NCBI RefSeq assembly: GCF_030052815.1
Contig: NC_079507.1
Span: 19,738,141-19,802,140, forward strand
DNA: 64,000 nt
Reading direction: 5' to 3'
From: Hevea brasiliensis
Lineage: Eukaryota; Streptophyta; Magnoliopsida; Malpighiales; Euphorbiaceae
In this document: positions 10,926-59,901 of the stretch, in pieces
Layout of the letters: each line of letters begins with the position of its first letter
Position numbering within the stretch: the stretch's first letter is position 1
Translations under genes and position numbers: made by a program
Notes under the pieces: model-generated
What the model saw: the letters and a program-made list of their open reading frames with translations, nothing else
Told to the model about the DNA's origin: nothing
Database searches by the model: none

Positions 10926-10930
10926 TTTAG

Positions 10931-11051: not shown

Positions 11052-12067
11052 ATGGATCCTGCTTCGCAAAGAGCAGTTGATGAAGAGGTGGAGAGTCATG
11101 CTCCACCAAGGGCCGAATCCAGGGTAGGGAGAACCCACTCCACCAGCAGCTGAGGCACCTGCTCAACCTCAGTTTTCTCTATTTCAGCAAATGACCGAGT
11201 TCTACCGGCAAATTATGGGGGCAATTCCACCACCACAACCACAGCCACAACCTCCACCAGCACCACAAAAATCTCATATGGAGAAATTACGAAAACATGG
11301 GGCTGTAGACTTCTTTGGGAAGAGGGAGGATGATCCCATGGCTGCAGAAAATTGGTTGGACTGAGCAGAGTACTAAACTTGATTAAGCGCACCGCACCGA
11401 GCGTAACTCAGTGGGTGTTGTGTCCCTACTTCAGGATGACGCATATCAGTGGTGGGACATAGTAACCAGTGAGGTGCAACCTGAACGGATCACCTGAGAA
11501 TTCTTCCTTACAGAGTTCAGGAAGAAATATATTAGCGAAGTATATTTAGAAGAGCGAAGAAGGGAATTCATCAGTTTGAGACAAAGACAGTTGTCAGTGG
11601 CTGAGTATGAGCGTGAGTTTGTCAGACTGAGCCGGTATGGGAGGGAGATAGTCCCTACCGAGGCGGAGAGGTGCAGACGGTTTGAGGAAGGGCTCAATGA
11701 CAACATCAAAGTTATGATCACAGCACTGGAGATTACGGATTTTGCTAAACTGGTAGATGCAGCATCAAAAGTGGAAAGGGTTAGAATCAATGAACAAAAT
11801 AGAAGGGAAAGACAGCAGAAGAGGGGTCCGGGTCAGTCCAGTGCATATTCTGCTCCCAGTAAGAAGAGTAAGGGTCCTCCTGCTCAGAGTTCGGGACCAC
11901 CACAGGGTCAGGGTCAGTCTCAGGGGCCCAGACCACAGTTCACACCTAGGAGAGGCCAGTCCACACCATCAATGGGCAGCTCTCCAGGGACGGTGTTTAG
12001 GGGACCAGCCCCTGCATCTTCTGCTTGTCAATACTGTCAGAAGTGGAATAAGGGGGAGTGTTAGCGA
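11052..12067 (+). pseudogene. E2 gag, frameshifted
   Basis: A plausible start is the ATG at 11052 (MDPASQRAVDEEVE). The frame is lost near 11120 and regained as a Pro/Gln-rich segment (PPAAEAPAQPQ onward, 11135-11280). HGAVDFFGKREDDP follows near 11300. A small deletion near 11365-11390 shifts the frame, and TGA replaces a Trp near 11490. The core is open from 11500 to 12060: EFRKKYISEVYLEE, SVAEYEREFVRLSRYG, then a basic Gly/Gln/Pro-rich linker. A zinc-knuckle region (CQYCQKWNKGEC) is cut by TAG at 12062-12064 and continues beyond as [14 protein letters not shown]. Confidence 0.82.
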
Positions 12068-13717
12068 GTGACCAGTGCATGCTTACAGTGTGGATCGACA
12101 GAACATCAGATCAAGAATTGTCCAAAGAGGACTACTACTGTTGCTCCAACACAAACTGACAGACCTGCTCCTGCACCACAAAGGGGTAGGAAACCTGGTA
12201 AACCTGAGACAGCTGGTCCATCACTGAGGCCTGCATCTGAGTCAGCTGAGAGGCCAGACACTAGAATACCAGCCAGGGCCTATGCCATCAGAGCTCAGGA
12301 GGAGCAAGATGCCCCGGATGTCATCAGGGGTACGTTTTCCCTCTATAACACTTCTGTACATGCATTGGTGGATCCAGGATCCACTCATTCCTACATTTGC
12401 ATCAAACTACCCGTAGAGAGGGGAGTTCCAGTAGAGGAGAGTGATCAAGACATTCTGGTCACAAATCAACTAGGCCACAGTGTAGTAGTGAATAAGGTGT
12501 ATAAAGGGTGCCCGTTGAGGATTCAGGGGTATGAATTCTCGGCAGACCTAATTGAATTGCCCTTCCATGAGTTTTATGTGATTTTGGGAATGGACTGGTT
12601 GTCACGTCATCAGGCAATAGTTGATTGCAAATTGAAGAGAATTTCTCTGAAAAGTTCTGAGGGTAATGAGATCACTGTTGTGGGTGAAAGGACAGATTTC
12701 CTGTCCAATGTTATCTCAGCTATAGTTGCAAGAAGAATGATGAGAAAAGGCTGTGAAGCTTACCTAGCACACGTGGTTGATACTAGGCAAGCTAAGCCAA
12801 ACCTGTGTGAGATACCCACAGTAAGAGACTTCCCAGATGTATTTCCTGAAGAGTTGCCTGGTTTACCACCAGAAAGGGAAGTTGAGTTTGCTATTGAGGT
12901 AATGCCGGGTACAGCACCCATTTCCATTGCTCCTTACAGGATGGCACCCACTGAATTGAGGGAGTTGAAAACTCAGTTGCAAGAGTTGCTTGATAAGGGG
13001 TTCATACGGCCCAGTGTGTCACCATGGGGAGCTCCGGTATTATTTGTGAAGAAAAAGGATGGAACCTTGAGATTGTGTATTGATTACCGGCAGTTGAACA
13101 AAGTAACTGTGAAGAATAAATATCCATTGCCCAGAATCGACGATCTATTTGATCAGTTGAAAGGAGCCGGTGTATTTTCAAAAATTGATCTCAGATCAGG
13201 ATATCATCAGCTAAGGGTAAAGGATGCAGATGTGTCAAAAACTGCATTCAGAACTTGTTATGGGCACTATGAATTTCTAGTGATGCCGTTTGGGTTAACA
13301 AATGCACCAGTAGCATTTATGGACCTTATGAACCGTATCTTCCATCCATACTTAGATCGGTTTGTAGTGGTCTTTATTGATGATATTTTGGTGTATTCTA
13401 AGACCAGAGAAGAACATGATGAATATTTGAGGATTGTTCTGCAAATCCTGCGAGAAAAGAAGTTGTATGCTAAGTTGTCCAAGTGTAACTTCTGGATGAG
13501 TGAAATCTCTTTCCTTGGACACATAGTATCAGCTGAGGGGATTAGAGTAGATCCCAAAAAGATAGAAGCAGTGATGGAATGGAAGCCACCCAGAAATACA
13601 ACTGAGGTCAGAAGTTTCTTGGGGCTAGCTGGGTATTACAGAAGGTTTGTGAAGGGGTTCTCTCTTATAGCTGCTCCAATGACCAAGTTGTTGCACAAGA
13701 ATGTGAAATTTGGCTAG
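12068..13717 (+). CDS. E2 protease and reverse transcriptase (549 residues, open)
   Basis: This is the best-preserved coding stretch in the window. It opens just after the stop in gag with the end of the zinc knuckle ([13 protein letters not shown], residues 7-19). The protease follows, with active site [11 protein letters not shown] at about residue 100 and [15 protein letters not shown] near 175. The RT has [62 protein letters not shown] and the catalytic [28 protein letters not shown] follows. It stops at TAG where a Trp is expected. It would be part of a gag-pol polyprotein rather than a free protein; the first residue is not a real start. Confidence 0.88.
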
Positions 13718-16189: not shown

Positions 16190-19165
16190 TGTAACACCCT
16201 CCCGGTAGCAACTCCGTACATTCTACTGTTCCGGTGACCAGTGTCGGTCCGGACAGCTAGAACGTCCGGAAAAATATTTAAACTAAAGAGAGGAACCATA
16301 ATTAACTCAAATATTAATAAGAAAAATTTAGGAAAAATTTTAGAAATAAAATACAACCAAGTTAAATGAGCCGGTGCCCTAGCGATGGGTAACCTAGTGA
16401 GAAGTTGCGATTCTCGCAACTAGGAGCCCTAGACCCAGGGGAAAAATTATAAAATAATTTTTGGGACTCCAGAGAAGGGTCATTGAGGTTTTTATGGCAT
16501 TAGAATGCCAAGGAAATGCTTAGAAAAATTTTTCAATCGGTACAGACAATTTTGGCCCGGTAAGCCAAATGGAGGGCATTTTGGTCATTTCGTCTTCAGA
16601 GATGATTTTTGACCAACTTGTCCATTTATGCAAGTGAATTATATGACATAAAATATGAACAAATATTAATGAAAATTTATTTAAAAATGAATAAGCAATG
16701 AAAGAAAAGTAAATGGAAATAATGGGATTTATTACCTCATGCTTATGTAAGCATGAGGTAATTAAAAATGCTATGGCCAATCACATTAAAGCAAGACAAT
16801 TAAAATTCAATAAAAAGGGATAAATGAGGCAGAATTCTAGAAAATTTTAGCAGCCCTTTCTCTCTTCAAAAACGTCACCCATGCTCTCCCATTGTCCACC
16901 ATAGCCAAGCTTTACCAAGCTTGATTTTCTTGGTTTTTACCCAACTAAAGCCTAAGTTCCCAACACAAATTCTTGTTCTTTCCTCTTAGTAAAGCTTTTT
17001 GGAGCAAAAAGAAATCAAAAGGAAGAGTTATTACAAGCTTGAGATTAGCTCCATTAAAGGTTAGTGACAATTAATTCTTTAAACTTATATATGCATTATT
17101 AGGAGTGTGAATTGATCCATTGATTTTATGTGTTTGAAAAGTTGAAATGGTAGAGCTAGGGTTTGGACCCAAAATTGAGATGTTGATCATGTAATGGTGA
17201 AATTATGTTTTAATGGTCAATTAGTGACCATTTGGTTTGGTTTGAACCAAAAATGAAGTGAATTGGGTTGTGGGATTTGAGGTTGGAGTGGCTGCCTTGT
17301 GTGACCTGCAGGTGTGGCTGTGAGTCCAGCCTGTTTGGAAAGCCATAACATGAATTGTAGAGGTTCAATTGGTGTTTGGCCAATTGTACATGAAACTAGA
17401 CACATAATGGCACAACTTTGATGAAGAAACCATGCCCAGAAAACCAAACCAACTTGACCAAAAATTTACCCTAATTCGGGTAACCTGCAATCTGCCTGGG
17501 CAAAATGACCAAATGAACAGTATTTGGTCATTTGGCCATAACTCAATCTAGCAAGGTCCAATTGACCTGATCTTTTACCAGCAACAAGTTGAGATATAGA
17601 TCAACAACTTTCATGAAGAAACCTGACCCAAATTATGATCATAATCTAGTCAAATTGTCAACCAAACTTGAGTTACAAAATCTGGCAGAAACAATTTTAC
17701 CCAGAATTTTGGGTTCTGCCCAATCCGACCAGTTATGGTTTTTAGGCCATAACTTGAGCTACAAAACTCAAATGGAGTGATTCAAAAAATGAAATTCAAC
17801 TAGACAAAATAAGGAACAACTTTCATGTTTATCAGTTTTCCAAATTCCCATTGCAATAGTAACTAATGGAACAGTAAACCCAAAGCTTGAAAACTGAAAA
17901 TTTTGTCCAATTCACATTAAGCTTAGAGATGGTATTGGCAACCAATACCAACAAGTTTAAAATACAAAATGTGGTATGTTGATGATATTTAAACTAATTT
18001 ACCTATAGCCAATGCAAAAGTCAACATTTTGGTTGACCAATGAAATGAATAGTAATCATAAAAATTTAATTTCAAAGAATTACATAAAAAAAAAGTGTTA
18101 AATGCCCTAGTAGGCCTAATGTGATTGGTTTGGATAGGTTGGCGTGCTAATAGGGTTCCATTGTCAGATCGCATATGGCTTCATGCCATTCTGTATTTCA
18201 TGGCTTTCCATGCCATTCTGTGACATAATAGCCTTTGGCTATGATATTGAGTTGTTATACTCGGGTTTAATCTCCGATAATTATCACAGCTTATTAGCTG
18301 TTCTGTTGCTCGTCGGGAGACACAATGTGACCGATGGTGTGATGGTCCGAGGTACTTAGTACCGCATGCAGTTACCCGCTTATCCACGATCACCAACTAG
18401 TATAGGTTACTCGGGCAGTATTAATAAATCTTACCAAACTTCAATTGAATAATATTGCAATAAACATTTGAGACTTAGTTCACCCAAAAAATGTAAACAT
18501 ACATTCTGTACACATATTTTTATTTTATTTTATTTTATTTTATATTGTCACCACTAAGCAGAATTGCTTAGCGTGTCGCTTTTGCCACGCGCAGGTACTG
18601 GAGACATAGCTGGGGAGTCCAACAGACCTCATACAGGGTGAGCCTTCATATCTGCACTCAGAGTTCAGAGTCACCTCACATTGCAGTGCATTTGGTAGGA
18701 CATTAGGCCATTTTGATATTTTGATATTTTGTATTTTGTAACCTTCTGTAATGTATATTATAAATTCATGTAATTATGCTTTTGATGTAAATATCTATGA
18801 AACATGTTCAGTAATAAATTGAGTTTTTTTTTTTTTATTGAGTTGACTGTGGTTTGAATTTAATTGAATTTTGAGATATTGAAGTGAATTGAGAAATTGT
18901 TGAGAATATATTGGAGGTTGATTGAGAATAAGGTGATGATATTATTGGGAGTGTTTTTAACAGGTTCATAAGAACTGTTTTTCCAATTTGTAGCCGGCAC
19001 TCTGTCGGATTTTCTATAAAATTTGCAAAAAAATTTAGTTTTATCAAAAATTATAAATAAATGAATTAAAAAGGATTAATTGAAATTGAAACATGAATTG
19101 GTGTTCCGACACACTGAGTGGCATAACTTGCTCGGCTACACTGTAGACGGGTAAGGGGTGTCACA
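16190..19165 (+). repeat. E2 3' LTR
   Basis: It matches 7941-10925 end to end with scattered substitutions and a few small indels. An example of the indels is the shorter ATTTT tract near 18520. It ends GTGTCACA, then TTATA. Confidence 0.93.
16731..16762. other. Perfect hairpin in E2 3' LTR
   Basis: Identical to the 32-bp hairpin at 8483-8514 in the 5' LTR: 15-bp arms with a TG loop. Confidence 0.85.
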
Positions 19166-19170
19166 TTATA
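19166..19170. repeat. Right target-site duplication of E2 (TTATA)
   Basis: Pairs with 7936-7940. Beyond it the E1 LTR resumes. Confidence 0.92.
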
Positions 19171-36509: not shown

Positions 36510-36870
36510 TGTCGCAATGGGATTTTTGCGGTCGCCCGGACGATCACTCACCGAAGTGGGAAAGAGTGAGGAGTCGCTACCTTAGTTTTGAGGGTAACTA
36601 AAGAAAACCATTTGAGAAGATAAATAAAGAATGAAACCACTTCAAGACAGAGATTCTAGGTTCGGGGTCCGTAAACGGGTGGGGAAGGTGTTAGGCACCC
36701 CACCTCGTCCCTTAATAAGGGTAAGTAGATTTAATTTTGCGTCCTTTATAAATTAGTTAGAAGGGCTTGAACGGGAATGTTAATCCTTTTGGTAAGAGGA
36801 ATATTTGGTTTTTCACTAATTAGGATTACCCAGATACACAAGTAAATGAGACAACCTTAGTGAACGAGTG

Positions 36871-37310
36871 TGAGAATCGGATAAGAACTCTCCTCCGACC
36901 TCTTTTAAGTTATTTATTAAAGTTTTGAGGGGAGACCGGATAAGAACTCTCCTCCGATCCCCTTTAAGTTATTTATTTTTAGGATGAGACCGGATAAGAA
37001 CTCTCCTCCGATCCCTTTTAGACGTTTATTAAAATTTTGAGGGGAGACCGGATAAGAACCCTCCTCCGATCTCCTTTAGAGTTATTTATTAATGTTTTGA
37101 GTTGAGACCGGATAAGAACTCTCCTCCGATCTCTATTTAATGTTTATTAAAATTTTGAAGGGAGACCGGATAAGAACTCTCCTCCGATCTCTTTTAGACG
37201 TTTATTAGAATTTTGAGGGGAGACCGGATAAGAACCCTCCTCCGATCTCTTTTAGACGTTTATTAGAATTTTGAGGGGAGACCGGATAAGAACCCTCCTC
37301 CGATCTCTTT
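36871..37310. repeat. 8-unit tandem array (about 56-60 bp units) in Ogre LTR copy 1
   Basis: Each unit contains GATAAGAACTCTCCTCCGAT or a near variant, followed by a T-rich spacer. The first unit is the most divergent. The same eight units occur in LTR copy 2. It lies on the transcribed (R-U5) side of the sense TATA box, so it would be in the leader RNA. Confidence 0.92.
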
Positions 37311-37893
37311 CGGATTAGCAGGAGCCTGGAAGGGGCTTTGCCGATCTCCCGAATTTCAATTTCAGCTACATGTCACAAGAACCTAAAACTAAGGTTTCTG
37401 GCATTCAAAAATGCTGGAGATAAGGTTTCTTGATACCCTATGACTAAATGGGTAATACTAAACTTGATTTACCGACCTTCCATGTAGTCATTTTACGCAT
37501 ACCTATTAATGTCCGATCTGTTCTGTCTAGATTATTTTGGTTTTATTCCTCTTCATGGTATCTTGCCGAATTCCCGTTCACGTCAGCCTAATAGTTTGGC
37601 TATTTTCCTGACGTGTTATTCAAACTTTCTCTTTTAAAAGAGACCCTTAAGTTGCAGATACCTATATTTTGCCTGACCACTTACACGCTACTAGGAGCTA
37701 AAAGCTCGTATTCAGAAATGACGAAAATTGATGAAATGATGGACCGATCACTAAAGAGATAATTCGAGAGTAACGTTCTTTGAGATTTTTTTGCTTAGAA
37801 TAAACCTAGAGAAAACCGCATACGTAAAGAGAACAAAGAAAGTGCGAAAAGTAAACGCAAATACTTAATAAAACAGTAATATGAACTCTTACC

Positions 37894-38063
37894 TGTGAGG
37901 AGCCAAATATATTGAAATAACTGTGAGGTGGTAAATAGTGATGGAGATGGCGGATTGATCAGCCTGAGAGTTGATGTCTGTGAGGAGCCAAATGTATTGA
38001 AATAACTATGAGGTGGTAAATAGTGATGAAGATGGCGGATTGATCAGCCTGAGAGTTGATGTC
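37894..38063. repeat. 85-bp tandem duplication in Ogre LTR copy 1
   Basis: Two 85-bp units (37894-37978, 37979-38063), each starting TGTGAGGAGCCAAAT. They differ by a few substitutions. The duplication is also present in copy 2, so it predates their separation. Confidence 0.93.
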
Positions 38064-38373
38064 TGTCGTGAAACCGAGAGATGCTTTAGCTAAAAGGTAA
38101 CCAGGTAAGAACCAGGTGGAAGGAAGTTGAGCTTGAACAGAGGAAAAGAAAGCAGAGATGATGAGAGTATGACCAGATAATGAACAAACTGGAAATGTAG
38201 AGTTCCAGATTCAAAATCTTTTCAAGAAAACACTCCAAAAACTAGTTTCAAAAGTCTTTTAATCACTACAAAACAAAGCAGAGTAACAAACCGAATGAAG
38301 TTTCGAGTTCCTCCACGATAATAGCGACCTCTTGTCTATATTTTTTCCGTCCTTGAACAGCTTTTTCATGCAG

Positions 38374-38381
38374 TATTTATA
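38374..38381 (-). promoter_or_regulatory. Sense TATA box of Ogre LTR copy 1
   Basis: The minus strand reads CCTATAAATACTGC, oriented to transcribe gag-pol. It is followed downstream by the array-rich leader. The same site is conserved at 55807-55814. Confidence 0.6.
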
Positions 38382-38963
38382 GGAATCGGGTGCTCCCCAT
38401 GAAGGGTCGATTTATTTTGAGGGAGATGGAGGGTCAAGATTTTGAAGTACATGATCGGACGTTCAGAATTAAAGAGAATCAAAACGAATGGTCGAGATCG
38501 CTTCGTAATATTTGTCCTTTTCCTCTTTTAACTGACGGTCTTGAGTCCTCTTGTCCGAACGATCCGAGGGCTAAGAGTGAAAACGCCGTATTGTCGCTTC
38601 TCTTTGATCCAAGGGTTCCGGATTCATCCTTACAAGTGAGATCGACGGTGGAGATTGGGATGTACAGGATCGCCATGACATACCCGCACTGCCAAGATTA
38701 AGTGGCGATTCTTAGGCGTATGTGGATATCTCGTCCGCCGCGCTTTAACTACTCCTCGGCTCGATTCGACGACGGTTATTGGGATTTGTCTTATTCTTTT
38801 GTCTTCCGATCTCTCCCCTAGCTCCTATTCCGATCTCTCATGCCGATCTCCTATCTCCGATCTCTTTTATCCCTTGATCACCGATTCGGTCCAAGCATTA
38901 ATTGCATCTCGATTCTCAAGGCCCGCTTGCTTTCCCGCTAAGCATTAAATGCCCATTTCCCCC

Positions 38964-38971
38964 TATATATA
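38964..38971 (+). promoter_or_regulatory. Antisense TATA box 1 of Ogre LTR copy 1
   Basis: TATATATA in the context CCCCTATATATACCC, preceded by GCATTAAATGC. It is oriented opposite to gag-pol, about 585 bp from the sense TATA box, and conserved in copy 2 at 56392-56399. Confidence 0.5.
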
Positions 38972-39315
38972 CCCATGTCGACAGATACATTTTCTTCATA
39001 TGACTTTCCTATCTTCATTTCTTACTTACCTTGTTCTAGCCGCTCCCAGAGAAGTTTTGGCTATAATCGAGGCTTTGATCTTTTCCGATGGATTTCTTTC
39101 ACCGATCAAAATTTACGATCCCGTGATTGGATGATCCTAATTGACGATGGTGAGAGAACTGGATTTGACCGATCCGTATTGCGGGCCTCGTTGTACCGAT
39201 CTCGAGTTGCTCAACCGAGTTCATTCGGCTTCTCATCACATTGAGTGTTCCGACAATGATTCTCGATCCACATTGGGTGTTCCGACAATGGATGAAGCAT
39301 CCGTCGGCAATATCC

Positions 39316-39545
39316 TTGGGATCGCTTATAACCGATCCTTAGATCGCTGGTGGTATCCTTGGGATCGCTTATAAACCGATCCTTAGATCGGCCCTTCAGA
39401 TAGGATTTTCGCTTGCCTCTAGAGATCGCCCAAATGATGTAATTCTTCAATGTAATCGATCTCTAGAGATCTCCCAAATGATGTAGTTAGACCTTTATTG
39501 TAATCCGATCCCTAGAGATCGCCCAAATGATGTAATCCGATCTCT
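39316..39545. repeat. Short CCGATC-rich tandem repeats in Ogre LTR copy 1
   Basis: Two units containing CCTTGGGATCGCTTATAA (near 39316 and 39356) are followed by three units containing CTAGAGATC(G/T)CCCAAATGATG (near 39418, 39465, 39509). These continue the strong enrichment of CCGATC/GATCGG across this LTR. Confidence 0.8.
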
Positions 39546-39795
39546 TGAAAATAAAGACTTTACTTTGTTGCTATCATCTTATTATTTTGCATTGATTATT
39601 TTCCGATCTCGATGTGATTATCCAATCGACTCTTTACCCGAATGACCCTTAACCGATCCTTTATTCAAAATTTTTAACTCATTATGCCGATCTCTAATTA
39701 ACCGATCTCGTAACATTCGGTTATTTGAGAACAATTGCCGAGTCCCACCAATCGATGCGCCTTAGAACTTCGCGAGCATTAAATGCTCTGACTAG

Positions 39796-39803
39796 TATAA
39801 ATA
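39796..39803 (+). promoter_or_regulatory. Antisense TATA box 2, promoter of the LTR gene, copy 1
   Basis: TATAAATA in AGTATAAATAGGGG, 156 bp upstream of the ATG at 39952, followed by a C/T-rich leader typical of plant 5' UTRs. Conserved at 57224-57231. A GCATTAAATGC motif precedes it, as at TATA box 1, so the two look like duplicated promoter modules. Confidence 0.65.
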
Positions 39804-39951
39804 GGGGTGGGAGGGTTAGCCGCTTGTTCTCTCATTCCTTTCTCACCTCTTGTTCACAACTTCAAGTTCTCTCCTTTTCTCCGCTTCTTCCGACGATCGA
39901 CTCCTAAGGGCTTTAATCCTCTTTTAGTTTAAGTTCTTTGTTTTTTTGAAA

Positions 39952-41791
39952 ATGAGCGGTGCGAAGGTCGAGAGCGGCGAGCCCTCCTTCCATTCAGTTC
40001 TCATGGTCATCGCCCGATGAAGAAGAGGCATGGGCCCAAACAGGCAACCTAAACCCCTAAGGTCTCTCGCCTGTGCCTGGTCGGGTCATACCATCAAGGC
40101 TTGCACCACCTTCAAGGAGAGAGACCCTTCCTATAGACGAGCTTCCGCTTCTTCTTGAACTGACCGCAATCGCTTGTTCAAGAATACAACATTTGTCCCG
40201 ATTCATATGAGCCGATCAAGTGCCATGGCGATCTTCGTGTCGATCACTCTTTGAAGAGGATGACATGGTTATGGTGTATGAGGAATGCTTAAAGGCCGGC
40301 CGAGGTTCCCTCTAGACGATTTCTATAAGGAGGTCCTAAAATTTCACCGAGCATCCATTGTTCAAATCCACCCCAACTCGTGGCGGATCTTGGTTGCTTT
40401 CCGAGGTCTATGCCGAGCTAAGGGAATCAGACCTACGGCTAAGGTGTTCGCCGAGCTACATGCACTAACTCACAAAGGATGACGAACACTGGTTCTTTCA
40501 GTAAGCCTCATTGCGGACTCTTTTCCGATCCGCCTCATCCCTTAAGAATTGGAAGAACCGGTTCTTCATTCCGAGGAGTAAAGATCCGAGCCGCTTTGAG
40601 GACTTTCCTCGTAGCCGTGGTACCAGGGCCCTCGCTCAAGCACATTACCTTGAGTCAAGAGGAAAGCTCAATAGTGATGGAGCCGAAAAGCCGTGCCGCC
40701 ACTCTAAAATATTCTCGCCCAAATGCGGTGATCGAATCGCACCATTGACCATGCAATCGATCACCGCCAAGCTCGCGAACTTCCGCTCTCGACTCGGCAT
40801 TGGTATTTTCTATATCTCGCCTTTAACCTTAGAGATCTCACTAACCTTTTCTTTGTGCAGGTATGGCGGGTGGTGAGGGTTCTAGGAAGCGGAAGAAGAA
40901 CAAAGAGATCTTCCGAAAGTAAAGGAGATGAAGCGTCGAACGACTTCAAACACCGGCCATGAACTCGGGAGATACAAAGAGACCCACCTCAACCTTCGGT
41001 CCGCCGACCACCGGCCGCCGATCTCCTCCTAGATCGGAAGAGCGCCTCCGCCTCTCTCGCTTGTCCCAAGCACGGAAGGGGGCCTCCTCAAGCTTCGGGA
41101 GGACCTCTTCTCGTGGCGCCAAATGCCGATCGATCGCTTGAAGAATAACCGATCGTGGAGAACCCCGATTTTGCCAAAGTCCCGGGTCTACCATCTTCTT
41201 TCAGAGGACCGACAGTTATCCTGCATGGTCTCGATGATATCTTGACTCAACCATGAGCCTAAACGTGGAGTGTCCGTGAACCGCACCATGATTCGGGAAA
41301 AGATTCGGTCTGGTAAGGAGGTCGGGAAGAAAAATCAAGAATTGGCTTCCTCCGATCCCAACTCTCATCCGCCGGATTATATATCTCAAGTCGAGGGACG
41401 GCGAAGTACCATGAAGACCACCGGCCGAAGGTCTCGTGACTTGGCCGAAAGTGAACGGGCTCTCGAGAAGTCCGTGCACTTCAGCCAACGGCCGCTCAGT
41501 CGCTCAACTTGTAGAGGAGCTTAACGCTGAAGGATAAGGAGCTTTCGAGAAAGACAAAGAGCTTAAGGAAAAGGATGAAGAGATGGTGTCTGAATAGCCT
41601 GAGCCTATGTGAATGCTCATAATGATCTCTTGGCCGAACTCCAAAAGCGCTATCCTCAAGAGGACTTCTCTTGGATGGACGACTGCTCCTGGGCGATGGT
41701 GAAGATAGTGAGGAGGAGGGCGAGGAAGAGAGAGAGAGTGAGCAGACAATCAGTCGGGGTGATCCTCACCAATAACTTGTACAAATTATGA
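39952..41791 (+). pseudogene. LTR-encoded antisense gene, PF04195-like ('putative gypsy type transposon' domain), copy 1
   Basis: This gene-like unit lies on the strand opposite to gag-pol, inside the LTR. The start is ATG at 39952 (MSGAKVESGEPSFHS), placed below a TATA box and C/T-rich leader. After frameshifts comes a segment at 40290-40480 with FPLDDFYKEVLKFHRAS and IHPNSWRILVAF. WKNRFFIPRSKDPS follows near 40550. This pattern is typical of plant proteins with the PF04195-type domain, whose function is unknown. A possible 58-nt intron lies at 40803-40860. The C-terminal half has KDKELKEKDEEM (coiled coil), NAHNDLLAELQKRYPQEDF and an acidic Glu/Asp/Ser tail, ending YKL at TGA 41789-41791. 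Small indels break the frame. Confidence 0.65.
40803..40860 (+). other. Possible short intron in the LTR antisense gene, copy 1
   Basis: GTATTTTC at 40803 and a pyrimidine-rich acceptor CTTTTCTTTGTGCAG ending at 40860. The acceptor is convincing; the donor is one of several choices. Conserved at 58236-58292 in copy 2. Confidence 0.45.
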
Positions 41792-42387
41792 AATGAAATG
41801 GAATATCTCTTTGTTCAATGAATGGATGTGATTGGAAAATCTTTGAATTGCCTAAGTATTTGATTGTATGAGCATAGCGAAACATGAACTAAATGCCATT
41901 ATTAATCTAAGTATAAAAGATCGGAAAGCACAATAAGCATGAGATCGGTGGGGAGAAATGTCGAACGGACTTGATTAAAATTGAAAATTTAACTTGAACA
42001 CTTAAGATCGGAACCCTCGTTAAACCGAACCAAAACTTTAGCTCTTAATCTTCCGAAAAGGAGGTCGGCAATAAAACTGGTAAAAAATCTAATGCTAGTT
42101 CACTTCATTTATCAACAGAGATCAGGGATATACCCGACGGGTCCGGAAATTCGATAGCGGGTTTGAGAGATCGGTGAATGATTTGAGAGATCGGGAGGGC
42201 TTTAACGAATGTTAGGACTTAGCATTGATTCAATTCCTTTTAAGGAGAGTTCGGAAATATGGTCATCTGGTAAAGAAAAATGAAGAGAAGTTGGAAATGT
42301 CATTGGCTGGCCCAGGGAGACCTAGTGCTGGGGATCGGTTTCAAAGTCTTGTTGATTTTGGGGATCGGCCAAAATATGGTGTCGACA

Positions 42388-42402
42388 GCTGCCCCTCTTT
42401 AC
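42388..42402 (-). other. Ogre-type polypurine tract, copy 1
   Basis: The minus strand reads GTAAAGAGGGGCAGC directly upstream of the LTR start (TGTCGACACC). In copy 2 the equivalent (59770-59783) is GTAAAGAGAGGCAT. Confidence 0.8.
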
Positions 42403-42526: not shown

Positions 42527-43200
42527 AAGTACCAGAAAATTAAAATCAACTTAGATCAAGGAACCAGAGGTTGATAACAGGAAATTTAAATTGCATGAAA
42601 TTAAAATCAACTTAGATCAAGGAACCAGAGGTTGATAACAGGAATTTAAATTGCATGAAGTTAAAATCAACTTAGATCAAGGAACCAGAGGTTGATGACA
42701 GAAATTTAAATTGCATGAAATTAAAATCAACTTAGATCAAGGAACCAGAGGTTGATAACAAGAAATTTAAATTGCATGAAATTAAAATCAACTTAGATCA
42801 AGGAACCAGAGGTTGATAACAGAAATGTAAATTGCATGAAATTAAAATCAACTTAGATCAAGGAACCAGAGGTTGATGGTGGAATTGCAGGAAATTAAAA
42901 TCAACTTAGATCAAGGAACCAGAGGTTGATAACAGAAATGTAAATTGCATGAAATTAAAATCAACTTAGATCAAGGAACCAGAGGTTGATAGCATGAAAT
43001 GTAAATTGCAGAAAATTAAAATCAACTTAGATCAAGGAACCAGAGGTTGATAGCAGGAAATGTAAATTGCAGAAAATTAAAATCAACTTAGATCAAGGAA
43101 CCAGAGGTTGATAACAGAAATGTAAATTGCATGAAATTAAAATCAACTTAGATCAAGGAACCAGAGGTTGATGGTAGAATTGCAGGAAATTAAAATCAAC
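42527..43200. repeat. 11-unit tandem array (about 60-bp units) in the Ogre 3' untranslated region, copy 1
   Basis: Units share AAAATCAACTTAGATCAAGG followed by AACCAGAGGTTGAT, with a variable AT-rich tail. Two units are shortened to about 47 bp (near 42870 and 43175). It lies between pol and the 3' LTR, the usual place for hypervariable arrays in Tat-lineage elements. Copy 2 has the same number of units. Confidence 0.93.
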
Positions 43201-46180: not shown

Positions 46181-46935
46181 TCCGAGTAGTTCAAAATAGG
46201 CTCACTTTGGCAAAGTGAGATTAGAAATAAATCTTGAAATGTAGTTCAACTTTCCTAGAAAATCACGCACCTCCCTTTCTCGCTTTTGGGGACGGCATTT
46301 CTTGAATAGCTCGAACTTTGTCCGATCCACTTCTATCCCTTTCTCGCTACTATGAATCCCAACAGCTTTTCCCGATCTAGCTCAAGATGCATTTAGCAGG
46401 TTCACCTTCAACTTGTATTTCCCGAGCCTTTCGAGCACCCTCCTCATCACCCGAACGTGGCTCTCTTCTCCCGGATTTAATGATCATATCATCCACATAT
46501 ACCTCCACTTCTTTATGCATCATATCGTGGAATAATGTGACCATTGCGCTACCGTAAGTAGCCTCGGCATTCTTCAACCCGAAGGGCATGACCCGATAGC
46601 AAAATACCCCATTGGGTGATGAAAGCGCTTTATCCTTGTCTTCCTTGTCCATCTAATCGATTGTACCTCGATGCCCCATCAATACATCGAACACCTACCC
46701 AATCCCGCAAAGATTGTCAACTAACACATCAATGTGAGGGAGAGGGAAATCATCTTTCAAACTTGCTTTATTAAGGTCCCCGTAGTCAACACACACCCGA
46801 CTCTCCGTCTTTCTTCACATTACGACGACATTAGCCACCCATTGGGGATATTTGACTACTTCCAAGAACCCACACATATCGCTTGACTTCATCCCAACCT
46901 TGAGCAAAGGTGTCGATTCATTCTCCTCGCCGCTT
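46180..46935 (-). pseudogene. Reverse transcriptase of Ogre element, copy 1
   Basis: The open block at 46377-46652 contains MDKEDKDKALSSPNGVFCY, VMPFGLKNAEATY and the catalytic VYVDDMIIKS. YVDDM rather than FIDD is usual for Tat/Ogre. After the catalytic box a frameshift follows a CCCGG run; copy 2 keeps the frame there. The RT fingers region lies at 46700-46930 in broken frames. KLNYISRFISNLT-like sequence is near 46220. Confidence 0.82.
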
Positions 46936-53957: not shown

Positions 53958-54310
53958 AGTCGCCGAATGGGATTTTTATGTCGCCTGACGATCACTCACC
54001 AAGTGGGAAAGAGTGAGGAGTCGCCAACTTAGTTTTGAGGGTAACTAAAGAAAACAATTTGATAAGATTAATAAAGAATTAAAACACTTCAAGACCGAGA
54101 TTCTAGGTTCGGGGTCCGTAAACGGGTGGGGAAGGTGTTAGGCACCCCACCTCGTCCCTTAATAAGGGTAAGTAGATTTAATTTTGGCCCTTTATAAATT
54201 AGTTAGAAGGGCTTGAACGGAATGTTAATCCTTTTCTTAAGAGGAATATTTTGTTTTTCACTAATTATTATTACACAGATACACTAGTAATTGAGACAAC
54301 CTTTGTGAGC

Positions 54311-54752
54311 GATTGTGAGAGTCGGTTAGGAACTCTCCTCCGACGTCTTTTTAGTTATTTATTAAAGATTTGTGGGGAGACCTGATAAGAACTCTCCTCC
54401 GATCCCCTTTAAGTTATTTATTTTTAGGATGAGACCGATAAGAACTCTCCTCCGATCCCTTTTAGACGCTTATTAAAATTTTGAGGGGGATCTGATAAGA
54501 ACCCTCCTCCGATCTCCTTTAGAGTTATTTATTAATGTTTTGAGTTGAGACCTGATAAGAACTCTCCTCCGATCTCTATTTAATGTTTATTAAAATTTTG
54601 AAGGGAGACCTGATAAGAACTCTCCTCCGATCTCTTTTAGACGCTTATTAGAATTTTGAGGGGAGACCTGATAAGAACCCTCCTCCGATCTCTTTTAGAC
54701 GCTTATTAGAATTTTGAGGGGAGACCTGATAAGAACCTCCTCCGATCTCTTT
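54311..54752. repeat. 8-unit tandem array in Ogre LTR copy 2
   Basis: Counterpart of 36871-37310. Seven units read CCTGATAAGAAC or a close variant where copy 1 reads CCGGATAAGAAC. Confidence 0.92.
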
Positions 54753-55325
54753 CGGATTAGCAGAGCCCGAAGGGGCTTTGCCGATCTCCGAATTTCAATT
54801 TCAGCTACATGTCACAAGAACCTAAAACTAAGGTTTCTGGCATTCAGAAATGCTGGAGATACGGTTTCTTGATACCCTATGACTAAATGGGTAATACTAA
54901 ACTTGATTTACCGACCTTCCATGTAGTCATTTTACGATACCTATTAATGTCCGATCTGCTCGTTTCTAGATTATTTTGGTTTTATTCCTCTTCATGGTAT
55001 CTTGCCGAATTCCGCTCACGCCACCTAATAGTTTGGCTATTTTCCGACGTGTTATTCAAACTTTCTTTAAAAGAGACCCTTAAGTTGCAGATACCTATAT
55101 TTTGCCCCGACCACTTACACGCTACTAGGAGCTAAAAGCTCGATTCGTAAATGACGAAATTGATGAAATGATGGACCGATCACTAAAGAGATAATTCGAG
55201 AGTAACGTTCTTTGAGATTTTTTTGCTTAGAATAAACTTAGAGAAAACCGCATACGTAAAGAGAACAAAGAAAGTGCGAAAAGTAAACGCAAATACTTAA
55301 TAAAACAGTAATATGAACTCTTACC

Positions 55326-55495
55326 TGTGAGGAGCCAAATATATTGAAATAACTGTGAGGTGGTAAATAGTGATGGAGATGGCGGATCGATCAGCCTGAG
55401 AGTTGATGTCTGTGAGGAGCCAAATGTATTGAAATAACTATGAGGTGGTAAATAGTGATGAAGATGGCGGATTGATCAGCCTGAGAGTTGATGTC
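55326..55495. repeat. 85-bp tandem duplication in Ogre LTR copy 2
   Basis: Units 55326-55410 and 55411-55495, as in copy 1. Confidence 0.92.
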
Positions 55496-55806
55496 TGTCG
55501 TGAAACCGAGAGATGCTTTAGCTAAAAGGTAACCAGGTAAGAACCAGGTGGAAGGAAGTTGAGCTTGAACAGAGGAAAAGAAAGCAGAGATGATGAGAGT
55601 ATGACCAGATAATGAACAAACTGAAATGTAGAGTTCCAAAGATTCAAAATCTTTTCAAAGAAAACACTCCTCAAAACTAGTTTCAAAAGTCTTTTAATCA
55701 CTACAAAAAATCAGAGTAAAAAACTGAATGAAGTTTCAGAGTTCATCCACGATAATAGCAGCCTCTTGTCTATATTTTTTTCCGCCCTGAACGCTTTTTC
55801 ATGCAG

Positions 55807-55814
55807 TATTTATA
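55807..55814 (-). promoter_or_regulatory. Sense TATA box of Ogre LTR copy 2
   Basis: TATAAATA on the minus strand, conserved with 38374-38381. As the 5' LTR of internal region 1, this copy would drive its genomic RNA. Confidence 0.6.
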
Positions 55815-56391
55815 GGAATCGTGCTCCTATGAAGGGTCGTGATTTATTTTGAGGGAGATGGAGGGTCAAGATTTTGAAGTACATGATCTGATGTTCAGAA
55901 TTAAAGAGAATCAAAACGAATGGCGAGATCGCTTCGTAATATTTGTCCTTTTCCTCTTTAACTGACGGTCTTGAGTCCTCTTGTCCGAACGATCCGAGGG
56001 CTAAGAGTGAAAAACGCCGGTATTGTCGCTTCTCTTTTGATCCAAGGGTTCCTGATTCATCCTTACAAGTGAGATCAACGGTGGAGATTGGGATGTACAG
56101 GATCACATGACATACCCCGCACTCACAAGATTAAGTGCGATTCTTAGGCGTATGGTGGAGATCTCGCTCGCCACGCTTTAACTACCTCTACTCGATTCGA
56201 CGACTGCTATTGGGATTTGTCTTATTCTTTTGTCTTCCGATCTCTCCTAGCTCCTATTCCGATCTCTCATGCCGATCTCCTATCTCCCGATCTCTTTATC
56301 CCTTGATCACCGATTCGGTCCAAGCATTAATTGCATCTCGATTCTCAAGCGCCCGCTTGCTTTCCGCCAAGCATTAAATGCCCATTTCCCC

Positions 56392-56399
56392 TATATATA
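56392..56399 (+). promoter_or_regulatory. Antisense TATA box 1 of Ogre LTR copy 2
   Basis: TATATATA preceded by GCATTAAATGCCC, conserved with 38964-38971. Confidence 0.5.
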
Positions 56400-57223
56400 C
56401 CTCGACGAGACATTTTCTTCATCCGACTTTCCTCTCTTCATTTCTTACTTACCTTGTTCTAGCCGCTCCAGAGAAGTTTTGGCTATAATCGAGGCTTTGA
56501 TCTTTTCCGATGGATTTCTTTTCACCGATCAAAATTTACGATCCTTGATTGGATGATCCTAATTGACGATGGTGAGAGAACTGGATTTGACCGATCCAGA
56601 TTGCGGGCCTCTGCTGTACCGATCTCGAAGTTGCTCAACCGAAGTTCATTCGCTTCTCATCACATTGAGTGTTCCGACAATGATTCTCGATCCACATTGG
56701 GTGTTCCGACAATGATGAAGCATCCTGGCAATATCCTTGGGATCGCTTATAAACCGATCCTTAGATCGGCTGGTGGTATCCTTGGGATCGCTTATAAACC
56801 GATCCTTAGATCGCCCTTCAGATAGGATTTTCGCTTGGCCTCTAGAGATCGCCCAAATGATGTAATTCTTCAATGTAATCGATCTCTAGAGATCTCCCAA
56901 ATGATGTAGTTAGACCTTTATTGTAATCCGATCCCTAGAGATCGCCCAAATGATGTAATCCGATCTCTTGAAAATAAAGACTTTACTTTGTTTGCTATCA
57001 TCTTATTATTTTGCATTGATTATTTTCCGATCTCTGATGTGATTATCCAATCTGATTCTTTACCTGAATGACCCTTAACTGATCCTTTATTCAAAATTTT
57101 TAACTCATTATGCCGATCTCTAATTAACCGATCTCAGAACATTCGTTATTTGAGAACAAATTGCCGAGTCCCACCAATCGATGCGCCGCTTAGAACTTCG
57201 CGAGCATTAAATGCTCTGACTAG

Positions 57224-57231
57224 TATAAATA
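57224..57231 (+). promoter_or_regulatory. Antisense TATA box 2, promoter of the LTR gene, copy 2
   Basis: TATAAATA in AGTATAAATAGGGG, 152 bp upstream of the ATG at 57376. Confidence 0.65.
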
Positions 57232-57375
57232 GGGGTGGGAGGGTTAGCCGCTTGTTCTCTCATTCCTTTCACCTCTTGTTCGCAACTCAAGTTCTCTCCT
57301 TTTCTCCGCTTCTTCCGACGATCGACTCTAAGGGCTTTAATCTTCTTTAGTTTAAGTTCTTTGTTTTTTTTGAAA

Positions 57376-59219
57376 ATGAGCTGTGCCAAGGTCGAGAGCG
57401 GCGAGCCCTCCTTCCATTCAGTTCTCATGGTCATCGTCCGATGAAGAAGAGGCAATGGCCCAACAGGCAACCTAAACCCCTAGGGTCTCGCTCCTGTGCC
57501 TGGGTCGGGTCATACCATCAAGGCTTGCACCACCTTCAAGGAGAGAGACCCTTCCTATAGACGAAGCTTCCGCTGGTTCTTCGTGAATCTGACCGCAATC
57601 GCTTGTTCAAGAATACAACATTTGTCCCGATTCATATGAGTCGATCAAGTGCCATGGCGATCTTCGTGTCGATCACTCTTTGAAGAGGATGACATGGTTA
57701 TGGTGTATGAGGAATGCTTAAAGGCCGGCCCGAGGTTCCTCTAGACGATTTCTATAAGGAGGTCCTAAAATTTCACCGAGCATCCATTGTTCAAATCCAC
57801 CCCAACTCGTGGCGATCTTGGTTGCTTTCCGAGGTCTATGCCGAGCTAAGGGAATCAGACCTACGGCTAAGGTGTTCGCCGAGCTACATGCACTAACTCG
57901 CCAAAGGATGACGAACATCGGTTCTTTCAGCGTAGCCTCATTGCGGACTCTTTTCCGACCGCCTCATCCCTTAAGAATTGGAAGAACCGGCTTCTTCATT
58001 CCGAGGAGTAAAGATCCGAGCCGCTTGAGGACTTTCCTCGTAGCCGGTGGTACCAGGGCCTCGCTCAAGCACATTACCTTGAGTCAAGAGGAAAGCTCAA
58101 TAGTGATGGAGCCGAAAAGCCGTGCCGCCACTCTAAAATATTCTCGCCCAAATGCGGTGATCGCGAATCGCACTATTGACCATGCAATCGATCACCGCCA
58201 AGCTCGCGAACTTCCGCTCTCCGACTCTGGCATTGGTATTTTCTATATCTCGCCTTGACCTTAGAGATCTCACTAACCTTTTCTTTGTGCAGTATGGCGG
58301 GTGGTGAGGGTTCTAGGAAGCTAAGAAGAACAAAGAGATCTTCCTAAAGTAAAGGAGATGAAGCGCTCGAACGATTTCAAACACCGGCCACGAACTCGGG
58401 AGATACAAAGAGACCCACCTCAACCTTCGGTCCGCCGACCATTCCGGCCGCGATCTCTCCTAGATCTAAGAGCAGCCTCCGCCTCTCGCTTGTCCCAAGC
58501 ACGGAAGGGGGCCTCTCAAGCTTCGGGAGGACCTCTTCTCGTGGCGCCAAATGCCGATCGATCGCTTGAAGAATAACCTGATCAGTGGAGAACCCCGATT
58601 TTGCCAAAGTCCCGGGTCTACCATCTTCTTTCAGAGGACCGACAAAGTTATCCTGCATGGTCTCGATGATATCTTGACTCAACCATGAGCCTAAACGTGG
58701 AGTGTCCGTGAACTGCACCATGATTCGAAAAGATTCAAATCTGCGGGTAAGGAGGTCGGGAAGAAAATCAGAATTGGCTTCCTCCGATCCCAACTCTCAT
58801 CCGCCGGATTATATATCTCAAGTCGAGGGACGCGAAGTACCATGAAGACCACCGCCGAAAGGTCTCGTGACTTGGCCGAAAGTGAACTGCTCTCAGAGAA
58901 GTCCTGCACTTCAGCCAACGGCCGCTGTGTCGCCAACTTGTAGAGGAGCTTAACGCTAAGGATAAGGAGCTTTCTCGAGAAAGACAAAGAGCTTAAGGAA
59001 AAGGATGAAGAGATGGTGTCGAATAGCCGAGCCTATGTGAATGCTCATAATGATCTCTTGGCCGAACTCCAAAAGCGCTATCCTCAAGAGGACTTCTCTT
59101 GGATGGACGACTGCTCCCGGGGCGATGGTGAAGATAGTGAGGAGGAGGGCGAGGAAGAGAGAGAGAGTGAGCAGACAATCAGCCGGGTGATCCTCACCAA
59201 TAACTTGTACAAATTATGA
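57376..59219 (+). pseudogene. LTR-encoded antisense gene, PF04195-like, copy 2
   Basis: Second copy of the unit at 39952-41791. The ATG at 57376 opens MSCAKVESGEPSFHS; frames then change. The PF04195-like segment at 57720-57900 has PLDDFYKEVLKFHRAS and IHPNSW. A further open stretch, 57809-58258, continues toward the possible intron (58236-58292). The C-terminal open frame at 59013-59219 reads VNAHNDLLAELQKRYPQEDF, then DGEDSEEEGEEERESEQ, ending YKL at TGA. Frame breaks fall at different places from copy 1, so each copy covers some of the other's gaps; neither alone encodes an intact protein. Confidence 0.65.
58236..58292 (+). other. Possible short intron in the LTR antisense gene, copy 2
   Basis: GTATTTTC donor and CTTTTCTTTGTGCAG acceptor, as in copy 1 (40803-40860). 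Confidence 0.42.
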
Positions 59220-59901
59220 AATGAAATGGAATATCTCTTTGTTCAATGAATGGATGTGATTGGAAAATCTTTGAATTGCCTAAGTATTTGATTGTATGAG
59301 CATAGCTAAACATGAACTAAATGCCATTATTAATCTAAGTATAAAAGATCTAAAGCACAATAAGCATGAGATCTGGGGGAGAAATGCTGAACGGACTTGA
59401 TTAAAATTGAAAATTTAACTTGAACACTTAAGATCGAACCTCGTTAAACCGAACCAAAACTTTAGCTCTTAATCTTCCGGAAAGGAGGTCGGCAATAAAC
59501 CGGTAAAAGATCTAATGCTAGTTCATTTTATTTATCAACAGAGATCGTGATATACTTGACAGTCCTAAATTCGACAACGGGTTTGAGAGATCAGAATGAT
59601 TTGAGAGATCGGAGGGCTTTAATGAATATGAGGACTTAGATTAATTCAATTCCTTTTGAGGAGAGATCGAAATATGGTCATCAAAGAAAATGAAGAGAAG
59701 TTGAAATGTCATTAGCTTTCAAAGAAGAATTTTTATTGATTCTAGGATCGCCAAAATATGGTGTCGACAATGCCTCTCTTTACATAATTTCTATTAAAGG
59801 AAAAAATTCCGTGATAGGAATTATGTAAAGATTCGACTCATATTTTGGACGATTAGGTGTTTCAAATTAGGGAACTAAAGCACACCTAAGTTAATGACCT
59901 A

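What the first reader, a model, noticed from the sequence alone, without database searches (positions are those of the whole stretch)
39796..41791. Gene-like unit antisense to gag-pol inside each Ogre LTR, with its own promoter
Both 5.8 kb LTRs carry, on the strand opposite to gag-pol, a TATA box, a C/T-rich leader, an ATG, a PF04195-like domain (PNSWRILVAF and WKNRFFIPRSKD signatures), a possible intron, a coiled coil and an acidic tail. Antisense ORFs are known in Tat relatives (Grande, RIRE2, Retand), but between pol and the 3' LTR. Here the unit is within the LTR, so every solo LTR would also carry it and it is duplicated in each element. This could be a way to spread a coding gene independently of gag-pol, or an accessory protein acting against or for the element.
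Basis: partly seen in the sequence, partly recalled or inferred. Interest (0 to 1): 0.75.

Follow-up and report, generated by a model that had tools for sequence, protein, structure and literature searches.

The report
Conserved antisense gene inside retrotransposon LTRs
A family of very large retrotransposons in the rubber tree carries, inside its terminal repeats and on the opposite strand, a two-exon protein gene kept by natural selection, so that even lone leftover repeats can hold a copy; known relatives of this gene lie between pol and the end repeat instead.

Summary
Confirmed and extended. The genome is Hevea brasiliensis (an NCBI Hevea protein sits on a contig exactly as long as one of its chromosomes). 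PF04195 lies on the strand opposite gag-pol (38.9 bits, cut-off 26.2). Twenty of 20 fetched copies carry the gene in the same LTR: 5 solo LTRs with perfect 5-bp target duplications, 5 5' LTRs, 7 3' LTRs, 3 unsorted. So the gene is in the LTR (U3), not between pol and the 3' LTR. It has a TATA box, two exons, an intron of about 61 nt (GT-AG) and 600 codons; 3 of 28 aligned rows are open throughout. Median dN/dS is 0.13 (exon 1) and 0.19 (exon 2); noncoding LTR gives 0.6. An NCBI gene model uses the same splice. The window's own two copies are broken and belong to a decayed clade (dN/dS 0.47). The LTR, but hardly the internal region, is studded with GAGATCGG. I infer an accessory DNA-binding regulator acting in trans on the LTR; transcription and binding are untested. 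The antisense TRP28 gene is a known kind; its place inside the LTR is, as far as I could find, new.

The parts
36510..42387 (-). Left LTR (3' LTR of the element read on the - strand), 5.88 kb, ends TGTCG...CGACA
   Evidence: ends recur in other copies
53958..59769 (-). Right LTR, 5.81 kb, about 5% diverged from the left one
42388..42400 (-). Polypurine tract next to left LTR (AAAGAGGGGCAGC on the - strand)
   Evidence: 1,890 exact PPT/LTR junctions in the genome
53938..53957 (-). Primer binding site, tRNA-Arg-like (tRNA sequence recalled); cleaner in 5' LTR loci
39796..39803 (+). TATA box of the antisense gene (TATAAATA); present in 26 of 27 aligned rows with coverage
39952..40802 (+). Exon 1 of the antisense gene (frameshifted here)
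40303..40467 (+). PF04195 (Transposase_28/TRP28) domain
40803..40860 (+). Intron, GT-AG, 58 nt here, 61 nt in 17 of 26 rows with letters
   Evidence: same junction in NCBI model LOC131183419
40861..41775 (+). Exon 2: basic stretch, proline-rich linker, coiled-coil-like part, acidic tail (frameshifted here)
57224..59216 (+). Second copy of the antisense gene in the right LTR (TATA 57224-57231, ATG 57376)
38964..38971 (-). TATA-like box of the sense (gag-pol) direction, back to back with the antisense TATA about 0.83 kb away
36878..37310 (-). 58-bp tandem repeat in the LTR; its consensus unit carries CCGATCTC (GAGATCGG)
42537..43172 (-). 60-bp tandem repeat between pol and the LTR
46380..46652 (-). 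Reverse transcriptase piece (RVT_1, 27.3 bits, just under cut-off 29.6)

Best explanation
Shown: this Ogre-like Ty3/gypsy family of Hevea carries in the U3 part of its LTRs, antisense to gag-pol, a two-exon gene of about 600 codons (TRP28/PF04195 domain, basic stretch, coiled-coil-like part, acidic tail) with a conserved TATA box; it has been kept by purifying selection over a synonymous depth like that of integrase, and is present in 5', 3' and solo LTRs. The window holds two broken copies from a decayed clade. Inferred: the protein is an accessory nuclear factor that works in trans on the family's own LTRs, dimerising by its coiled coil, reading the GAGATCGG motif repeated through the noncoding LTR and using the acidic tail to raise transcription or undo silencing at the back-to-back sense/antisense promoters. 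Antisense orientation lets it keep its intron and promoter through an RNA life cycle. The LTR probably took the gene in when plus-strand priming shifted to a polypurine tract upstream of it, turning a pol-to-3'LTR gene (the Retand arrangement) into a U3 gene.
For: 20 of 20 fetched PF04195 copies align to the window LTR; 5 solo LTRs with matching TSDs, 5 LTRs next to a PBS and 7 next to a PPT. dN/dS 0.13 and 0.19 in frame against 1.07-1.70 in the other two forward frames and 0.60-0.63 in noncoding LTR. Sample not chosen by the gene: 9 of 9 consecutive 3' LTR junctions carry it (2 in part only), dN/dS 0.183 over 35 pairs. Integrase 0.08 and gene 0.16 in the same 9 pairs. NCBI model LOC131183419 is identical to residues 249-600 of one copy's reading and uses the same splice. 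GAGATCGG: 6-13 per noncoding LTR part in nine LTRs against 0.1-0.2 expected; outside tandem arrays 4-10 per LTR in 9 of 9; 252 sites in 20 LTR stretches of up to 6.6 kb, one in 22,991 bp on the internal side of seven 3' LTRs, orientation nearly fixed by side. Window copies with broken genes keep 19 and 16 sites. Papers: TRP28 predicted to bind DNA (PMC11963269, parts 1-3 of 5 read); Grande GENE23 nuclear with its own promoter (PMC7264820, parts 1-2 of 3 read).
Against: No RNA, binding or localisation data. 0 of 9 copies in the gene-blind sample are open, and a clade with broken genes kept amplifying, so the gene is at best needed in trans. Only 3 of 28 rows are open, and the first 20 loci were picked for strong domains and long frames. 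NG86 gives 0.6 even in noncoding DNA, so ratios are relative. The gene's dS exceeds integrase dS in 8 of 9 pairs, clearly so in 2. Leader, intron and noncoding LTR are more alike between copies than third codon positions, unexplained. The motif sits partly in tandem repeats, its positions are partly shared by descent, and it may have another use. A sense TATA was found in 4 of 6 copies checked (one none, one not placed). No trace of an old PPT was seen between the promoters. The structure prediction failed (pLDDT 34). Ogre placement was not tested by phylogeny.
Confidence: 0.55

Rival explanations
1. The gene is the ordinary Retand-type antisense ORF between pol and a short 3' LTR; the '5.8-kb LTR' is an illusion made by the tandem array.
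For: The window repeat does run past the LTR into pol; known TRP28 ORFs lie between pol and the 3' LTR in elements with LTRs of 315-1,194 bp (PMC11963269).
Against: Five solo LTRs with identical 5-bp TSDs contain the module, and five 5' LTRs have it upstream of the PBS. The PPT precedes the gene-bearing repeat at 1,890 exact junctions, of which 9 consecutive ones were looked at and carry gene sequence.
Confidence: 0.02
2. The antisense unit works as RNA: its transcript pairs with genomic RNA and regulates or silences the element; the protein is incidental.
For: The gene lies opposite the 3' U3 of the genomic RNA, so sense-antisense pairs are possible; antisense RNA roles are proposed in PMC7264820.
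Against: Selection follows the reading frame (0.13-0.19 against 1.07-1.70 in the other forward frames), splice sites are kept and the constraint weakens in the decayed clade. RNA-level function predicts none of this.
Confidence: 0.08
3. The protein is an accessory factor of the replication cycle (nuclear import, integration targeting, genomic RNA handling) rather than a regulator of LTR transcription or silencing.
For: Conserved together with integrase at comparable synonymous depth in most of 9 pairs; nuclear localisation of Grande GENE23 (PMC7264820).
Against: Does not explain the LTR-confined, oriented GAGATCGG sites.
Confidence: 0.25
4. A dead relic: a once-coding insert in the LTR that no longer does anything.
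For: True of the two window copies (39 and 50 frame-breaking indels) and, it seems, of their clade (median dN/dS 0.47); 0 of 9 gene-blind copies open.
Against: Other clades: median dN/dS 0.158 over 300 pairs, 3 open copies, conserved splice sites and TATA.
Confidence: 0.08

Closest known systems
TRP28 (PF04195) antisense ORFs of Retand/RIRE2/Grande-type Tat elements (PMC11963269, PMC7264820)
   Same: PF04195 domain (reported for Retand), antisense to gag-pol, downstream of pol, often with tandem repeats nearby; own promoter reported for Grande
   Different: There between pol and the 3' LTR (Retand LTRs 0.3-1.2 kb), one place per element; here inside a 5.2-6.5 kb LTR, so in both LTRs and in solo LTRs, with an intron
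Ogre elements (PMC6317226; further traits recalled)
   Same: Very large element with very long LTRs and an extra ORF before gag (these Ogre traits are recalled; the paper gives LTRs up to about 5 kb for non-chromoviruses in general); DUF7745 ORF found here before gag
   Different: PF04195 is reported there for Retand (23%), not Ogre; no LTR gene is described in the passages I saw
MMTV superantigen (Sag) gene in the LTR (PMC3026287, passages)
   Same: A protein gene housed in the LTR, which is why that LTR is long
   Different: Sag is read from spliced sense viral RNA; here antisense with its own TATA box; no relationship claimed
VANC anti-silencing proteins of Arabidopsis VANDAL transposons (PMC5735166, PMC10398659; abstracts)
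   Same: Works-like comparison only: element-encoded factor with short repeated motifs, partly in tandem repeats, in the element's noncoding DNA
   Different: DNA transposon and, as far as Pfam shows, a different protein; binding and anti-silencing are shown there and untested here
HTLV antisense gene HBZ (antisense promoter in the 3' LTR cited in PMC7264820; rest recalled)
   Same: Antisense gene with promoter tied to the LTR
   Different: HBZ reads from the 3' LTR into the internal region (recalled); here promoter, both exons and end all lie inside the LTR

Membership tests
Antisense TRP28 aORF (Retand type) | PF04195 domain above Pfam cut-off | tested here: met
   38.9 bits, left window copy; right copy 21.5, below; 51.9 and 50.8 bits in two other copies
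Antisense TRP28 aORF (Retand type) | Antisense to gag-pol | tested here: met
Antisense TRP28 aORF (Retand type) | Located between pol and the 3' LTR | tested here: not met
   inside the LTR:
Retand lineage | LTR of 315-1,194 bp (range in PMC11963269) | tested here: not met
   5,248-6,507 bp in the five solo LTRs
Retand lineage | Reverse transcriptase phylogeny | not tested
Ogre lineage | Extra ORF upstream of gag (recalled definition) | tested here: met
   DUF7745, 58.8 and 94.4 bits, in L029 next to a 5' LTR; the following gag was recognised by eye only
Ogre lineage | Very long LTRs (recalled for Ogre) | tested here: met
   5.2-6.5 kb
Ogre lineage | aRH between RH and INT; RT phylogeny | not tested
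   no reference set; pieces broken in the window
Ogre lineage | Plant mobile domain PF10536 (57% of Ogre, PMC6317226) | tested here: inconclusive
   not seen in the pieces scanned; not universal in Ogre
VANC-like anti-silencing factor (works-like only) | Repeated short target motif in the element's noncoding DNA | tested here: inconclusive
   a repeated, LTR-confined motif is there; that it is a target is not shown
VANC-like anti-silencing factor (works-like only) | Protein binds the motif and removes DNA methylation | not testable with these tools
   needs binding assays and methylomes
VANC family | Sequence homology to VANC proteins | not tested
   not compared directly; Pfam names only PF04195 in exon 1 and nothing above cut-off in exon 2

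The most novel reading that the evidence does not exclude
An LTR that is a complete regulatory cassette: it encodes, on its antisense strand, a sequence-specific DNA-binding protein whose target motif (GAGATCGG) is repeated through the same LTR, so that every element and every intact solo LTR can supply in trans a factor that activates or un-silences the whole family, while copies with a broken gene live off it by keeping only the sites. This would be a VANC-like self-targeting system in a retrotransposon, housed in its LTR.
Probability: 0.3. Interest if true: 0.88.

Novelty: new variant of a known kind. Interest (0 to 1): 0.72.

Why it matters
LTRs are usually treated as noncoding control DNA and solo LTRs as dead scars. 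Here a selected protein gene with its own TATA box and intron lives inside the LTR of a family with thousands of LTR ends in one genome, and at least one copy is already listed as a plain host protein. The placement suggests a simple route (a shifted polypurine tract) by which elements could move accessory genes into LTRs. The LTR-confined GAGATCGG motif gives the TRP28 protein, of unknown function, a concrete candidate target, making its function directly testable.

Tried and rejected
Looked for relatives outside the genome: viral contigs (pattern; protein) and GTDB contigs gave none; the protein database gave P0001-P0005, while a search with a single-frame read-through of the window copy found none at E <= 1. 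Structure prediction of P0003 with three fragments was useless (mean pLDDT 34.3), so no fold search was made. Considered that the dense small deletions in the window copies were assembly error (52 deletions to 6 insertions in the left copy); rejected as the main cause because five of the six copies with this feature form one clade with support 1.0 and share 7-21 of them pairwise (37 between the two window copies); it may still explain the sixth, L006. Looked by eye for an old polypurine tract between the two promoters: none seen (window; one other copy). Tried to see where the tandem array ends to the right: it continues past the window edge, but the fetched stretches were partly withheld, so its end is unknown (an earlier script, printed nothing for the same reason). 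A count of 5' LTR/PBS junctions did not complete. The count of LTR outer ends (29 with PPT, 19 paired as 5' LTR, 52 neither, of the first 100 listed of 5,164) gives only an upper bound for solo LTRs, because partners with one changed base are missed.

Full report
Setting. The window is part of a 1.88 Gb genome. A protein found by homology, NCBI 'uncharacterized protein LOC131183419 [Hevea brasiliensis]', lies on a contig of 101,662,298 bases, exactly the length of contig C9 of the window's assembly, so the organism is Hevea brasiliensis, the rubber tree.

Observation. The + strand at 39796-41791 has TATAAATA, a C/T-rich leader and an ATG. One open piece (40282-40479) matches Pfam PF04195, Transposase_28, at E=1e-9, 38.9 bits against a cut-off of 26.2; in the right-hand copy the best open piece gives 21.5 bits, below cut-off, and the longest open piece of each copy gives no match. 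gag-pol is on the other strand: two RT pieces match RVT_1 (27.3 and 25.3 bits, just under the cut-off of 29.6). From the window alone it could not be decided whether the gene is in the LTR or between pol and a shorter LTR, the known place for such ORFs.

Is it in the LTR? A PF04195 scan of the genome had 9,594 first-look candidates; 150 were scored and all 150 passed the cut-off. I fetched 20 loci of 10 kb, chosen from these 150 mainly for long open frames. All 20 align to the window LTR. Where the LTR ends could be seen they recur at the same place, TGTCG...CGACA with a few changed bases. Five have a primer binding site just inside one end (5' LTRs: L009, L010, L014, L020, L028), seven have the polypurine tract at the other end (3' LTRs: L011, L016, L017, L018, L019, L021, L025), and five are solo LTRs flanked by identical 5-bp target duplications (L012, L013, L022, L024, L026). 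Three (L015, L023, L027) could not be sorted because one end was not matched. So the gene lies within the LTR, on the U3 side. The exact 30-base LTR/PPT junction occurs 1,890 times (control 0), the exact 21-base LTR outer end 5,164 times (control 0). Of the first 100 listed outer ends, 29 are 3' LTRs, 19 lie 10-30 kb on the internal side of such a junction (15 of the 19 at 16.9-18.7 kb), and 52 are neither, an upper bound for solo LTRs.

Gene anatomy. Twenty-eight rows (26 genome loci and the two window copies) were aligned; three loci (L001, L005, L028) hold only part of the gene. The ATG is kept in 25 of 28; the donor GT in 26 of 26 rows with letters; the acceptor AG in 24 of 25, two of them beside a one-base gap; the intron is 61 nt in 17 of 26 rows and 53-62 nt in the rest. 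TATAAATA is present in 26 of 27 rows with coverage. The model is 292 codons, the intron, then a second exon to codon 600. Three rows (L012, L021, L026) have no frame-breaking indel and no stop; the window copies have 39 and 50 frame-breaking indels. In the L021 reading there is a TRP28 region (the most conserved part between copies), a basic stretch, a proline-rich linker, a charged coiled-coil-like part (judged by eye) and a tail of net charge -16 in its last 50 residues. LOC131183419 is identical to residues 249-600 of the L021 reading and uses the same splice. A gene model is support for, not proof of, a transcript.

Selection. Over 378 pairs the median dN/dS (NG86) is 0.158. Without the window copies and L006, the true frame gives 0.13 (exon 1) and 0.19 (exon 2); the other forward frames 1.07-1.70; reverse frames 0.96-1.93, except the one sharing third positions (0.20, 0.26); noncoding LTR (17 loci) 0.60-0.63, which is the working baseline. 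In nine pairs of 3' LTR loci the medians are 0.08 for integrase and 0.16 for the gene; dS is comparable in seven pairs and much higher in the gene in two, and higher in the gene in eight of nine. The first loci were picked by domain strength, so I also took nine consecutive LTR/PPT junctions on contig C1, chosen without regard to the gene (8 fetched, plus L018, already held): 9 of 9 contain gene sequence (two only in part), 0 of 9 are open, and the median dN/dS is 0.183 over 35 pairs.

The window's own clade. winL, winR, L032, L033 and L037 form one clade (support 1.0) and share 7-21 small deletions pairwise (37 between the two window copies). Their dN/dS is 0.34-0.63, median 0.47, against 0.22 for 32 pairs of other copies with dS 0.03-0.30. 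This clade seems to have gone on amplifying with a broken gene, so the gene is not needed in cis.

A candidate target. GAGATCGG occurs 6-13 times in the noncoding LTR left of the gene in each of nine LTRs, where shuffles give 0.1-0.2; 2-5 times to the right of the gene; and 0-1 times inside it. Part of this is the 58-bp tandem repeat, but 4-10 sites per LTR lie outside arrays. In 20 stretches of up to 6.6 kb ending at the LTR outer end (some include a little flank; zones set by distance) there are 252 sites: left of the ATG 156 in one orientation and 6 in the other, in the gene 16 and 0, 3' of the gene 0 and 74; on the internal side of seven 3' LTRs, 22,991 bp, there is one, and in 5,001 bp of another element's internal DNA none. 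Window copies keep 19 and 16; none occurs in the first 36.5 kb of the window. Positions are partly shared by descent, so these are not independent events.

How it probably works. Shown: location, structure, selection, motif. Inferred: the product is a nuclear DNA-binding factor of the family's own LTRs. TRP28 is predicted to bind DNA and a regulatory role is suggested (PMC11963269); Grande's GENE23 is nuclear and has its own promoter (PMC7264820). Sense and antisense TATA boxes lie back to back about 0.8-1.0 kb apart in the window's left LTR and in four of six copies checked (L010, L012, L021, L022); L026 had no match and in L013 the script missed the gene's TATA. The antisense orientation matters: the gene's intron is not an intron in the sense genomic RNA, so it can survive retrotransposition, and its retention suggests that the gene travels on that RNA. 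The module order (pol, tandem repeat, antisense TRP28 gene, promoter) is that of Retand elements; only the LTR start, set by the polypurine tract, has moved to the far side of the gene. A shifted tract would do this in one step; I found no relic of an old one.

Known or new. [quoted passage not shown] In searches no listed title or abstract start describes a gene inside a plant LTR (one found no paper at all); I did not open most of the papers listed, and the library lacks most subscription papers. The element has a DUF7745 ORF next to the 5' LTR and LTRs of 5.2-6.5 kb, as expected of Ogre (recalled), but no RT phylogeny was run. I rate it a new variant of a known kind.

Noticed in passing
36511-64000: Tandem LTR-internal-LTR-internal array with a 17.4-kb period, running off the right edge of the window. 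Three same-strand LTR outer ends about 18 kb apart on contig C1 near 26.06-26.09 Mb suggest other such arrays.
   Followed up: partly
P0004 (Hevea P3X46_033951): A predicted pseudouridine synthase begins with about 50 residues like the antisense LTR gene (83% over 18% of the query), read into its intron: a chimeric gene model or an LTR-driven fusion transcript.
   Followed up: no
P0005 (LOC131183419), L021: An NCBI Hevea protein record is a piece of this LTR gene and is named only 'uncharacterized protein'; other such records may exist.
   Followed up: partly
aligned gene copies, e.g. L021: Leader (0.87), intron (0.89) and, in a partly different set of loci, noncoding LTR (0.83) are more alike between copies than third codon positions of the gene (0.71). 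Not explained: constraint on the LTR, CpG decay or module exchange are possible.
   Followed up: partly
20 LTR loci: GAGATCGG sites change orientation across the antisense gene: CCGATCTC on the left and in it, GAGATCGG to its right, with 6 exceptions of 252.
   Followed up: yes
L006 (unplaced contig C409): A copy with 22 frame-breaking indels although its nearest relative L015 has one; may be assembly error rather than decay.
   Followed up: no
1-34600: Other nested Ty3/gypsy elements lie left of the array, e.g. a 550-aa gag-pol frame at 12065-13717 and repeated segments at 7941-10927 and 16190-19167.
   Followed up: no
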